Positions 19,731 to 29,712 of a DNA stretch of 64,000 bases are shown here, one piece after another. The notes beneath the pieces are model-generated. The model worked only from the letters and a program-made list of their open reading frames with translations, had not been told where the DNA came from and made no database searches. Each line of letters begins with the position of its first letter. Within the stretch, counting starts at the first letter, position 1. The stretch is from positions 124,001 to 188,000 of the forward strand of contig PHCB01000007.1 of the NCBI GenBank assembly GCA_002842095.1, written 5' to 3'. A program made the translations under genes and the position numbers. Origin of the DNA: a candidate division BRC1 bacterium HGW-BRC1-1 (GTDB taxonomy: Bacteria > Sumerlaeota > Sumerlaeia > Sumerlaeales > Sumerlaeaceae).

Positions 19731-20059
19731 CGCCGGTCTCGCACCCGGTTGCCAACAACGATCTTTCCGCGTGGGCCGGGGATCAATCTCGTATTGGTGC
19801 GACCGGCGTGCAACCGGTGTGCAACCGGTGTGCAAGCCCTTTACCAATCCCGCCCAACCCCCTGCGTTTTTGCACATGCGTATTGACTCCCACACCATCC
19901 CCCTCCTCAATTCCAATTCAAACATCGCCGCATCCGCATAAAAGGGGGGAACCCGCAAACCATGTCACCGCGCAAGAAAACCGCGCACTTGATAAATCCA
20001 GTGCCAACCGCCCAGCGCGCCCCCGCCCTCAAGCTGACATCGGAGCAGCCACCGTACCC
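19731..20059. other. 329-base divergent intergenic region
   Basis: The region between the GH127 gene and hsdM contains the 11-bp tandem repeats at 19797-19840, a pyrimidine-rich stretch (19860-19930), AAGGGGGGA at about 19942, and a short leader ORF starting at 19962. No convincing sigma70 promoter is seen, although a TTGACT at about 19884 is a weak -35 candidate. Confidence 0.6.
19797..19840. repeat. 11-bp tandem repeat upstream of the restriction operon
   Basis: The unit GTGCAACCGGT occurs exactly twice (19808-19829), with a variant before (GTGCGACCGGC) and a partial variant after (GTGCAAGCCCT). The 11-bp period is close to one helical turn, so it could bind a regulator on one DNA face. 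Inference. Confidence 0.6.
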
Positions 20060-20063
20060 ATGA
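19962..20063 (+). CDS. possible 33-residue leader peptide coupled to hsdM
   Basis: An ORF of 33 codons begins MSPRKKTAHLINPV and ends in TGA that overlaps the hsdM ATG as ATGA. AAGGGGGGA lies about 11 bases before its ATG. The same ATGA coupling joins hsdM to hsdS and hsdS to the next gene, so this fits the operon style. The peptide is basic and proline-rich and matches no family I know. It may be a translational coupling device or a small protein. No homologue evidence is available, so it stays tentative. Confidence 0.4.
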   Translation: MSPRKKTAHLINPVPTAQRAPALKLTSEQPPYP

Positions 20064-26217: not shown

Positions 26218-29200
26218 ATGGCCTATACCGACATCAACACTGAAGACCGTCTCGTCCAGCACTCCTTTGCGGATCACCTGGAGAAGGTGCTTGGCTGGGA
26301 TAGTGTCTACGCTTACAACACCGAGACCTTAGGCCCATCCGGCACGTTGGGGCGGGACTCCGAGCGGGATGTCGTGCTGGTGCGAGATCTGCGGGCGGCC
26401 ATCGAAAGGCTGAACCCGGACCTGCCGGAGTCGGCGCGGGAGCAGGCTGTTGAGAAGCTCACCCACATTGATCCCGCCCGCTCGCTTATCCAGCACAACC
26501 GCGAGTTTTACGGCTTCATCCGTGGCGGGGTGCCGGTGGAGTGGCGCGATGCCAAGGGCGAGACACACCATGCGCTCGCGCGGGTGCTTGATTTCCGCAA
26601 CGCCGCCAACAACCGTTTCCTCGCTGTGCGCGAGCTGAAGGTGCAGGGCGTGCGCGTGCCGCACTACAACCGGCGCGCGGACCTCGTCTGCTTCGTCAAC
26701 GGGCTGCCCCTCGTGGTCATCGAGCTAAAGGCCGTCTACCGCAACATCCGCGCCGGTTTTGAAGACAACCTGACCGATTATCTCTCCGAGCACAGCATCG
26801 CCCACGCCTTCCACCACAACACCTTCCTCGTTGTGAGCAACGGCGACAAGGCGCGCTATGGATCGATCACGTCGAAATGGGAACACTTCTTCGAGTGGAA
26901 GCGTGCCGACGAGAAAGACGCGGCACGCCTGGATGCGGTGGCGCTGCTCGACGGCATGTTGGCGAAAGAGCGCCTTCTTGATCTGGTGGAGAACTTCATC
27001 CTTTTTGACGATAGCCGCGCGGGCGGAACCCGCAAGGTGGTGGCACGCAACCACCAGGTGCTGGGCGTTAACAGAGCCGTTGGGTCTGTGCTCAGGCAGG
27101 AGGAGTTGAAGCGGCAGTACCCGCCCCCCGCCCGCATCATCCAGTACCGCGCCTCGATGCCGGAACCGCCCTGCCTATCCGAATTGCCGCCGGAGGGGAG
27201 GGTGCATCCCGTTCCCTTCGTGGCGGAGGACGAGGCGCTCGACGATTTGAATCTTGTCAAGCTCGCACACCCCGATCTCGGGAAGCTGGGGGTTTTCTGG
27301 CACACGCAGGGTAGCGGGAAATCTTACTCCATGGCCTTTTTCACTGAAAAAGTACGCCGCACTATTCCCGGCAACTTTACATTTCTCGTAATGACCGACC
27401 GCGAGGACCTCGACAACCAGGTCTGCCGCACTTTCGCCGGTTGCAGCGTGACCGACGAGAAGACCCCCCGGGCATCCTCCGGGAAAGACCTTCAGGAGAT
27501 CTTGCAGGGTAACCACCGCTATGTCTTCAGCTTGATCCACAAGTTCAACCAGCCGGTCGTCGAGCCGTACAGCACGCGCGACGACATCATCGTGATCTCC
27601 GACGAGGCGCACCGAACCCAGGCGGGCAGGTTCGCCCGCAACATGCGCCGTGCTCTGCCGTATGCCTCGTTTATCGGGTTCACCGGCACGCCGCTGTTCA
27701 AGCATGACCAACTGACCAAACGGATCTTCGGCAGCTACATCTCGCGTTACGACTTCAAGCGCTCGGAGGAGGACCAGTCGACGGTTCGTCTGGTGTACGA
27801 GAATCGCGGGGAGAAGCTGGGGTTGGAGCGCCTGGACTTGAACGACCGGATCGCGGAAGCGGTGGAGGAAGCCGACCTCGACCCGGATCAGGTTGCTCTG
27901 CTGGAGAACCTGCTTGGCAGAGACTATGAGATTATCACTGCCGATGATCGCCTCGACAAGCTCGCCGAGGATTTCGTCGAGCATTGCTCCACCCGCTGGC
28001 AAAGTGGCAAGTCGATGGTGGTCTGCATCGACAAAATCACCTGCGCGCGCATGCTCCAGCGCATCCAACCCCGCTGGCAGGCCAAACTCGAACTGGTCAG
28101 GAAGGCAATCCAGCGCGCGGAGAATGCACTCGTCGCCGCCTGCGACCCGAATGTTATGGAGCGCATCTCCATTAATCTCGAAACTCTTCGCGGTCAGGCC
28201 CGCTGGATGGAAAGTACCATCATCGAGATGGTCATCAGCGAGGCGCAGAACGAGGTTCGGGACTTTGCCAAATGGGGTTTCGACATCATCCCCCACCGCC
28301 AGGTAATGAAGACCGGGTTCCACACCGCCGACGGAAAGCTGGTGCCGGTGGAGGACGCCTTTAAGGACCCCGACCACCCGTTCCGCATCGCCATTGTTTG
28401 CGCCATGTGGCTGACGGGTTTCGATGTAGAATGCCTCTCCACTCTCTACATCGACAAGCCCATGCGGGCTCACAATCTCATGCAGGCAATCGCCCGGGCG
28501 AATCGCGTTTACCCCGGCAAGGATTTCGGCGTCATTGTCGACTATAACGGCATGCTGAAAAGCCTGCGCGCGGCGCTTGCGCAATATGCGCTTGGTGACG
28601 AGGACGAGGGCGACGGCGGGGAAACTATCGTGGCACCGATCGAGGAACTTGTGGTCGCGTTGGTGCAGGCCATTGAGGCTGCGGAAGATCATCTGAAAGG
28701 TTTGGGGTTCGACCCCAAGCGTTTTGACGGTGCCGCCGGATTCATCCGAATTGAGGCACTGCGCGATGCGGTGGAAGCCCTCTACACTTCGGACGAAGCT
28801 AAGCGCCGGTTCGAGATCATGGCGCGGCAGGTTTTTGTCCGGTTCAAGGCGTTAGTCATGGAGCCCAGCGTCTACGCGTACGCCGAACGCCACGACAATA
28901 TTGAAGCAATCTATAAGAAGCTCACCGAGCGCCGCGACAATGCCGATGTGACCCAGGTGCTCAAGTCTCTCCACCGGATTGTAAATGAAGCCATCCGCGC
29001 ACAGCAACCGGGCGATGACCATGCCGAGGGACTGACTGTCGATCTCAGCAAGATCGACTTCGAGAAACTGCGCGACGAGTTTGCTGCCAAGGTGCGCAGG
29101 AAGAGCACCGTTCTGAAGGATATACGCGATGTGGTGGAGGAGAAACTTGCACAGATGCTCACGAGCAATCCCATGCGGATGGATTTCTACCGGAAATATC

Positions 29201-29712
29201 AGGAGATCATTGCGGACTATAACCGCGAAAAGGACCGGGTGACGGTGGAGCAGACTTTTGCGATGCTGGTCGAACTTGCAGCCGGTCTTGACGCCGAGCA
29301 GCGCCGCGCAGCCGAAGAGGGAATGAGCGAAGACCAACTGGCTCTTTTCGACCTGCTGTTACGAGAGAATATCAGCAAGTCCGATCGTGAGAGTCTCAAG
29401 CTGGCGAGCCGGGAGCTTCTGGAGTCGGTGCGAGAATCACTTCGAACGATGCACGACTGGACCCAGAACACCACAACGCAGGCTCAGGTGGAAGTTCTGA
29501 TCCGGAACAAACTCTGGCAATCTCTGCCGCGACCACCATTTACGGACCAAGACACAGAGCAAGCTACAAACCGTATCTATGAATACGTCTGGTCCCGGTC
29601 TACCAGTGGCAACGGTCTCGACGCCCCTGAGTTTCCCCTCTCCAAGCAGCAGGGGCTGGCCGGTCTCGGATCTGGACACCAAACAGGACCCACTTCTTCC
29701 CCCGGTTTCTGA
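26218..29712 (+). CDS. hsdR: Type I restriction endonuclease subunit
   Basis: An 1164-residue HsdR. The N-terminal nuclease core has Asp155 in RRADLVCF and Glu169-Leu-Lys171 in VVIELKA. The SF2 motor has Walker A in TQGSGKS (363-369), DEAH at 462-465, FTGTPL as motif III and QAIARANRVYPGKD as motif VI. A C-terminal helical part (about 800-1164) likely contacts HsdM. It translocates and cuts DNA when the recognition site is unmethylated. It starts six bases after the GmrSD-type gene. A stretch around 295-350 between the nuclease and motor looks longer than in classical HsdR. Confidence 0.96.
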   Translation: MAYTDINTEDRLVQHSFADHLEKVLGWDSVYAYNTETLGPSGTLGRDSERDVVLVRDLRAAIERLNPDLPESAREQAVEKLTHIDPARSLIQHNREFYGFIRGGVPVEWRDAKGETHHALARVLDFRNAANNRFLAVRELKVQGVRVPHYNRRADLVCFVNGLPLVVIELKAVYRNIRAGFEDNLTDYLSEHSIAHAFHHNTFLVVSNGDKARYGSITSKWEHFFEWKRADEKDAARLDAVALLDGMLAKERLLDLVENFILFDDSRAGGTRKVVARNHQVLGVNRAVGSVLRQEELKRQYPPPARIIQYRASMPEPPCLSELPPEGRVHPVPFVAEDEALDDLNLVKLAHPDLGKLGVFWHTQGSGKSYSMAFFTEKVRRTIPGNFTFLVMTDREDLDNQVCRTFAGCSVTDEKTPRASSGKDLQEILQGNHRYVFSLIHKFNQPVVEPYSTRDDIIVISDEAHRTQAGRFARNMRRALPYASFIGFTGTPLFKHDQLTKRIFGSYISRYDFKRSEEDQSTVRLVYENRGEKLGLERLDLNDRIAEAVEEADLDPDQVALLENLLGRDYEIITADDRLDKLAEDFVEHCSTRWQSGKSMVVCIDKITCARMLQRIQPRWQAKLELVRKAIQRAENALVAACDPNVMERISINLETLRGQARWMESTIIEMVISEAQNEVRDFAKWGFDIIPHRQVMKTGFHTADGKLVPVEDAFKDPDHPFRIAIVCAMWLTGFDVECLSTLYIDKPMRAHNLMQAIARANRVYPGKDFGVIVDYNGMLKSLRAALAQYALGDEDEGDGGETIVAPIEELVVALVQAIEAAEDHLKGLGFDPKRFDGAAGFIRIEALRDAVEALYTSDEAKRRFEIMARQVFVRFKALVMEPSVYAYAERHDNIEAIYKKLTERRDNADVTQVLKSLHRIVNEAIRAQQPGDDHAEGLTVDLSKIDFEKLRDEFAAKVRRKSTVLKDIRDVVEEKLAQMLTSNPMRMDFYRKYQEIIADYNREKDRVTVEQTFAMLVELAAGLDAEQRRAAEEGMSEDQLALFDLLLRENISKSDRESLKLASRELLESVRESLRTMHDWTQNTTTQAQVEVLIRNKLWQSLPRPPFTDQDTEQATNRIYEYVWSRSTSGNGLDAPEFPLSKQQGLAGLGSGHQTGPTSSPGF

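What the first reader, a model, noticed from the sequence alone, without database searches (positions are those of the whole stretch)
19962..29712. Type I restriction operon enclosing a GmrSD-type gene and an unknown nuclease-like gene
The order is leader ORF, hsdM, hsdS, unknown (D-ExK motif), DUF262/DUF1524/DUF5655, hsdR, with ATGA overlaps or gaps of 49 and 6 bases. Type I cuts unmodified DNA and GmrSD relatives cut modified DNA, so one operon could guard against both. The unknown protein, placed between hsdS and the GmrSD-type gene, could be a new partner. Operon structure is seen directly; the joint function is inference from the families.
Basis: partly seen in the sequence, partly recalled or inferred. 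Interest (0 to 1): 0.75.

Follow-up and report, generated by a model that had tools for sequence, protein, structure and literature searches.

The report
Restriction operon carrying two accessory nucleases
An ordinary type I restriction operon carries, between its target-recognition and cutting genes, a known kind of enzyme against chemically modified phage DNA and a small, uncatalogued nuclease-like protein whose rare distant relatives sit inside or beside other bacterial DNA-defence systems.

Summary
The operon is real: leader ORF, hsdM, hsdS, X, GmrSD (DUF262/DUF1524/DUF5655), hsdR, at the stated coordinates and with the stated overlaps; catalytic motifs I checked are intact. A GmrSD gene inside a type I operon is known (RloF, TgvAB, Machnicka 2015), so the 'guards against both' idea has a direct precedent. 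The open part was X (23334-24059), which matches no Pfam, PADLOC, NCBIfam, PHROGs or PDB family. Whole-genome searches found three distant relatives (22-30% identity). One lies between hmaB and hmaC of an Hma system, one is convergent with hsdM of another type I operon, and one directly follows a TrlF ATPase gene. None is near a GmrSD gene, and GmrSD genes in related type I operons lack X and carry other cargo (YhcG, DUF488). X is therefore probably not a GmrSD partner but a rare accessory gene moving between defence systems. All four share D...ExK; a model from four sequences (pLDDT 66, pTM 0.69) resembles mainly restriction-endonuclease-like structures (Z up to 7.8). Best reading: an undescribed family of PD-(D/E)XK auxiliary nucleases. 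New member of a known kind; function untested.

The parts
19962..20063 (+). 33-aa leader ORF, stop overlaps hsdM start (ATGA); probably translational coupling
   Evidence: sequence; no family
20060..22183 (+). hsdM, 707 aa, type I N6-adenine methyltransferase
   Evidence: Pfam/PADLOC; motifs DPACGSGG, NPPF
22180..23337 (+). hsdS, 385 aa, type I specificity subunit, two target-recognition stretches
   Evidence: Pfam/PADLOC
23334..24059 (+). X, 241 aa, uncatalogued protein of predicted PD-(D/E)XK nuclease fold
   Evidence: no family; three distant relatives; model and fold comparison
23541..23597 (+). putative catalytic motif of X: D70 (23541-23543) ... E86-A-K88 (23589-23597)
   Evidence: invariant in the 4-member alignment; position in strands 2 and 3 of the model
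24109..26211 (+). GmrSD-type single-chain type IV enzyme, 700 aa, DUF262 + DUF1524 + DUF5655
   Evidence: Pfam; PADLOC Orf5/HEC-06; motifs
26218..29712 (+). hsdR, 1164 aa, type I restriction/translocation subunit
   Evidence: Pfam/PADLOC/NCBIfam; motifs

Best explanation
This is a complete type I restriction-modification operon whose hsdS-hsdR interval, a known landing site for extra defence genes, carries two accessory genes. HsdM-HsdS methylate the host's sites, and HsdR with them translocates and cuts unmodified DNA (family knowledge). The GmrSD-type protein senses modified phage DNA through its NTP-dependent DUF262 domain and cuts it with its HNH (DUF1524) domain, independently of HsdR (inferred from the TgvAB and BrxU precedents). 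X is a small PD-(D/E)XK-fold protein of an undescribed, rare family that is found in or beside type I, Hma and TrlF loci. It most likely acts as an auxiliary or backup metal-dependent nuclease recruited by whichever DNA-sensing system it accompanies, not as a subunit of GmrSD. Shown here: operon, families, relatives and their contexts, conserved D...ExK. Inferred: catalysis, DNA as substrate, backup role.
For: Operon and families. Relatives of X: P0007 (pairwise E 2e-12; between hmaB and hmaC), P0008 (5e-8 to P0003 and 2e-14 to P0007; 12 bases from the hsdM end in an hsdR-hsdS-AAA_13-hsdM locus), and L063:9367-10077 (found at 9e-35 by profile; 36 bases after a TrlF gene, NF045780 4e-153). Residues L14 A15 F24 E25 C28 R30 E36 H61 P62 D70 E86 K88 D105 L106 R108 L109 are invariant. 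With the alignment the model rises from pLDDT 31 to 66, pTM 0.69, with D70 in strand 2 and E86/K88 in strand 3. Its structural matches by VIA-align are mainly restriction-endonuclease-like folds: AF1548, BstEII, BpuSI, NucC, Card1, Can2, Hjc, EcoRV. No GmrSD near the three relatives. Sister operons keep M-S-GmrSD-R but carry other cargo: L016 and L033 YhcG, L027 DUF488, L025 none. Literature: DarTG2 between hsdS and hsdR (PMC12255303); PD-(D/E)XK nucleases as the commonest auxiliary effectors of BREX and BREX-related (Hma) loci, GmrSD-type the most notable of the second class (PMC12839542).
Against: Only four members are known, and only one of them is inside a type I operon in the same orientation. 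The fold rests on a four-sequence model; all Z values are under 8 and no Foldseek match reached E 0.001. Profile comparison with HSDR_N, YhcG and Mrr gave nothing. There are no expression or activity data. A backup role is only one of several roles a nuclease-fold protein could have.
Confidence: 0.6

Rival explanations
1. X is a dedicated partner of the GmrSD enzyme, for example widening its range of modified bases or supplying second-strand cleavage, as TgvA does for TgvB.
For: Adjacent genes in one operon; TgvAB shows that GmrSD relatives can need a neighbour (PMC11411939).
Against: No X beside any other GmrSD gene fetched, including an 87%-identical one (L015); three relatives of X without GmrSD nearby; here the GmrSD protein already has both domains.
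Confidence: 0.1
2. X is an accessory subunit of the type I complex itself (an extra nuclease or DNA end-processing factor bound to HsdMS or HsdR).
For: Its start overlaps the hsdS stop; two of four relatives are at type I loci.
Against: Two other relatives are at Hma and TrlF loci without type I genes in the fetched stretch; type I lineages with 53-63% identical HsdM lack X (L016, L027).
Confidence: 0.2
3. X is a guardian or abortive-infection effector that attacks host nucleic acid when phage anti-restriction proteins block the system, like PrrC with EcoprrI or PARIS.
For: Position inside a type I locus, where PrrC is embedded (PMC12707154) and where DarTG2 lies between hsdS and hsdR (PMC12255303); sister slot genes vary.
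Against: No toxicity or trigger evidence; no sensor domain recognised in X; a stand-alone nuclease would need a gate.
Confidence: 0.2
4. X is a passenger without defence function, or a decaying gene.
For: Lower GC3 (0.62) and higher GC2 (0.49) than the neighbouring operon genes; no close relative found in about 85,000 species by peptide patterns.
Against: Intact frame, strong ribosome-binding site, putative catalytic residues conserved with relatives at about 25% identity, and all relatives in defence contexts.
Confidence: 0.1

Closest known systems
TgvAB in the VPI-2 type I operon of Vibrio cholerae
   Same: GmrSD-family enzyme embedded between hsdS and hsdR; joint cover of unmodified and modified DNA proposed
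   Different: TgvAB needs two DUF262 proteins; here there is one DUF262+DUF1524+DUF5655 protein, and the second embedded gene X is unrelated to DUF262
RloF and other rlo genes of Campylobacter jejuni type I loci
   Same: DUF262 gene and other variable ORFs between hsdS and hsdR
   Different: Different organisms and different second cargo gene; X matches no family model tested here
DarTG2 embedded in the RptR-controlled EPEC type I operon
   Same: Second defence module in the hsdS-hsdR slot
   Different: Cargo is a toxin-antitoxin pair; no GmrSD, no X
Auxiliary PD-(D/E)XK nucleases of BREX and BREX-related (Hma) loci
   Same: Nuclease-fold genes inside the core locus; one X relative lies between hmaB and hmaC
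   Different: That survey's main text names superfamilies; whether this family is among its supplementary lists could not be checked
YhcG (DUF1016) PD-(D/E)XK proteins in sister operons L016 and L033
   Same: Same operon lineage, same kind of cargo position, a PD-(D/E)XK domain
   Different: No detectable profile similarity to X

Membership tests
Type I restriction-modification system | HsdM with N6-adenine methyltransferase motifs | tested here: met
   N6_Mtase 6e-70, DPACGSGG, NPPF
Type I restriction-modification system | HsdS with target-recognition domains | tested here: met
   Methylase_S 1e-34, two stretches
Type I restriction-modification system | HsdR with endonuclease and translocase domains | tested here: met
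   HSDR_N 1e-36, SWI2_SNF2 3e-63, GSGKS, DEAH
Type I restriction-modification system | methylation of and restriction at a two-part site | not testable with these tools
   needs methylome and plating data
GmrSD type IV enzymes | DUF262 domain with QR, DGQQR, FxxxN motifs | tested here: met
   GmrSD_N 5e-34; QR24, DGQQR77, FESLN206
GmrSD type IV enzymes | DUF1524 HNH domain with catalytic H and N residues | tested here: met
   GmrSD_C 2e-24; EHVMPQ462, GNLTL495
GmrSD type IV enzymes | cleaves modified-cytosine DNA with NTP | not testable with these tools
   needs biochemistry
TgvAB | two DUF262 proteins, both needed | tested here: not met
   X has no DUF262 match; one DUF262 gene in the operon
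PD-(D/E)XK nuclease superfamily (X) | conserved D...(D/E)xK active-site signature | tested here: met
   D70, E86, K88 invariant in four relatives
PD-(D/E)XK nuclease superfamily (X) | restriction-endonuclease-like alpha-beta fold | tested here: inconclusive
   model pLDDT 66; top VIA rows mainly of this fold but Z at most 7.8, Foldseek E above 0.001
PD-(D/E)XK nuclease superfamily (X) | metal-dependent nuclease activity | not testable with these tools
   needs biochemistry
Named Pfam, PADLOC, NCBIfam or PHROGs family (X) | match to a curated model | tested here: not met
   no usable match for P0003; relatives none in the libraries tried for them

The most novel reading that the evidence does not exclude
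X founds an undescribed family of small stand-alone nucleases that several unrelated DNA-sensing defence systems (type I restriction, Hma, TrlF) have taken up as a shared backup effector, in the way that the gated MBL-fold nucleases are shared by Hachiman, AVAST and Lamassu.
Probability: 0.35. Interest if true: 0.6.

Novelty: new member of a known kind. Interest (0 to 1): 0.4.

Why it matters
The joint type I plus GmrSD arrangement is known, so it adds one more host lineage to it. X gives a concrete, testable candidate: a nuclease-fold family missing from the defence catalogues searched here, whose few members found all sit in or beside DNA-targeting or defence-associated loci. If active, it would support the view that backup nucleases circulate between unrelated immune systems.

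Tried and rejected
X as GmrSD partner: rejected on context. Search for X in plasmids, phages, viral contigs and 85,000 species genomes (the last two by exact-peptide patterns): nothing (later members likewise). X in 398 Pseudomonadota genomes and in about 220 genomes of each of two further phyla: nothing; empty answers there show little because the family is rare. Single-sequence fold of X: failed, pLDDT 31. Profile comparison of X with HSDR_N, YhcG, Mrr, HsdM and DUF262: nothing. Weak PDB hits to a DNA glycosylase (E about 0.01) and one member's weak Pfam hit HSDR_N_2 (E 0.13) were not used. Foldseek's own top rows were methyltransferases at TM about 0.3 and E 0.02 or worse: not used. Middle gene of the Ruegeria operon with the same layout (P0006) tested as a homologue: unrelated. 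Hits L058 and L062 rejected as chance (stops inside; DEAD-box helicase).

Full report
Observation. On the + strand lie a 33-aa leader ORF (19962-20063), hsdM (20060-22183), hsdS (22180-23337), X (23334-24059), a GmrSD-type gene (24109-26211) and hsdR (26218-29712). The first three junctions overlap by ATGA; the last two have gaps of 49 and 6 bases. Pfam, PADLOC and NCBIfam together support the named genes, and the catalytic motifs checked in HsdM, HsdR and GmrSD are intact. The flanking genes are a GH127 and a GH2 glycosyl hydrolase on the other strand, so this looks like an isolated defence operon, not a long island; a Mrr-type nuclease gene lies 4 kb further on. The window's phylum is small in the held collection (40 genomes searched); the closest GmrSD relative, 87% identical, is in a Phycisphaerales genome.

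What is already known. GmrSD homologues are enriched beside type I genes, and the DUF262 gene rloF lies between hsdS and hsdR in Campylobacter (PMC4619093). In V. cholerae VPI-2 the embedded pair TgvAB restricts phages with hypermodified DNA, and the authors propose the same complementary role (PMC11411939). DarTG2 and another gene pair occur in the same hsdS-hsdR slot, which is called a potential recombination hotspot (PMC12255303). The type I plus type IV part of the finding is therefore not new.

The slot is variable, GmrSD less so. Closest GmrSD relatives were fetched with up to 10 kb flanks. Four more type I operons share the order M-S-GmrSD-R or a close variant: L016 (HsdM 63%, GmrSD 69%, HsdR 64% identical), L025, L027, and L033 with a broken GmrSD gene. 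Their extra genes differ: YhcG/DUF1016 between hsdM and hsdS (L016), none (L025), DUF488 plus an unknown (L027), YhcG between GmrSD and hsdR (L033). Ruegeria TM1040 has M-S-unknown-GmrSD-R, but its unknown gene is unrelated to X. Many other GmrSD relatives stand outside type I operons altogether.

X. P0003 has no usable match in Pfam, PADLOC, NCBIfam, PHROGs or the PDB. No relative was found in plasmids, phages, viral contigs or, by exact peptide patterns, in 85,000 species genomes. Six-frame profile searches of whole genomes did find relatives: one among 392 genomes of a Planctomycetia genome's phylum (E 6e-7 per genome), one among 218 genomes of a Rhodothermales genome's phylum (E 6e-13) and a further one in an order-level sample around that second hit (E 9e-35). 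Pairwise BLASTP gives 2e-12 (P0003-P0007), 5e-8 (P0003-P0008) and 2e-14 (P0007-P0008); P0008 and the L063 protein are 41% identical.

Contexts of the relatives. P0007 lies between hmaB (2e-123) and hmaC (1e-118), with hmaA upstream (4e-188). P0008 lies convergently 12 bases after the end of hsdM in a locus hsdR-hsdS-AAA_13 gene-hsdM. The L063 protein lies 36 bases after a TrlF-family ATPase gene (4e-153) on the same strand. None has a GmrSD gene nearby. If about 1% of genes in a genome lie next to such systems (my rough assumption, not measured), three of three by chance would be about one in a million. This supports a defence link; it does not tell the mechanism.

Fold. Alone, P0003 could not be modelled (pLDDT 31). 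With four sequences the model reaches pLDDT 66 and pTM 0.69 with the order helix-helix-strand-strand-strand-helix-strand; invariant D70 lies in the second strand and E86-x-K88 in the third, the classical place of the PD-(D/E)XK active site (own knowledge). VIA-align's best rows are mainly restriction-endonuclease-like proteins (AF1548, TT1808, BstEII, BpuSI, BsaXI, NucC, Card1, Can2, Hjc, EcoRV); the top three have Z 7.6-7.8, rmsd 2.8-5.3 and 98-147 aligned residues. Each single Z is in the range that the tool warns about, and Foldseek itself gave no significant match, so the fold is likely, not proven.

Mechanism. Most likely X is a small auxiliary nuclease that serves whichever DNA-sensing system it accompanies. 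A recent survey finds PD-(D/E)XK nucleases to be the most common auxiliary effectors of BREX and BREX-related (Hma) loci, with HNH enzymes, most notably GmrSD-type ones, second (PMC12839542). MBL-fold nucleases are known to be shared between Hachiman, AVAST and others (PMC12799240). This operon would then hold a primary system (type I), a modification-dependent enzyme (GmrSD) and a backup nuclease (X). Catalysis, substrate and trigger of X are inference.

Verdict.

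Noticed in passing
window 34035-34892 (-): Mrr_cat restriction endonuclease with a topoisomerase-type zinc ribbon, beside a peroxiredoxin gene and about 0.8 kb from a tRNA-Gly gene (35723-35798): a second candidate modification-dependent nuclease near the operon.
   Followed up: no
window 23334-24059: X has lower GC3 (0.62) and higher GC2 (0.49) than the other operon genes (GC3 0.72-0.85), which would fit later acquisition.
   Followed up: partly
L033 6911-13203 (Candidatus Accumulibacter adjunctus): Type I operon with a frame-broken GmrSD gene followed by an intact YhcG gene and hsdR: an accessory gene decaying while the backbone stays open.
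   Followed up: partly
L029 10001-13873: Two DUF262-type proteins in tandem (42% and 22% identical to P0004) next to type I genes on the other strand, TgvAB-like.
   Followed up: no
L007 8047-8976 (Ruegeria TM1040 megaplasmid): A 309-aa protein (P0006) without Pfam match occupies the same slot, hsdS-unknown-GmrSD-hsdR.
   Followed up: partly
L059 6798-7871: AAA_13 ATPase-family gene between hsdS and hsdM of the type I locus that has an X relative at its end.
   Followed up: no
L055 14221-17985: Behind the Hma system with the X relative: an IrrE-like metallopeptidase/macro-domain protein, an adenylosuccinate synthetase-like fusion and a DUF7002 protein, possibly further embedded defence genes.
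   Followed up: no
L005 9001-20070 (Planktothrix plasmid): A GmrSD gene upstream of a set of CRISPR-associated RAMP genes.
   Followed up: no
window 19962-20063: 33-aa leader ORF with a G-rich ribosome-binding site; hsdM itself has none that is obvious, so translation of hsdM may depend on the leader; no counterpart seen in L016 or L025.
   Followed up: partly
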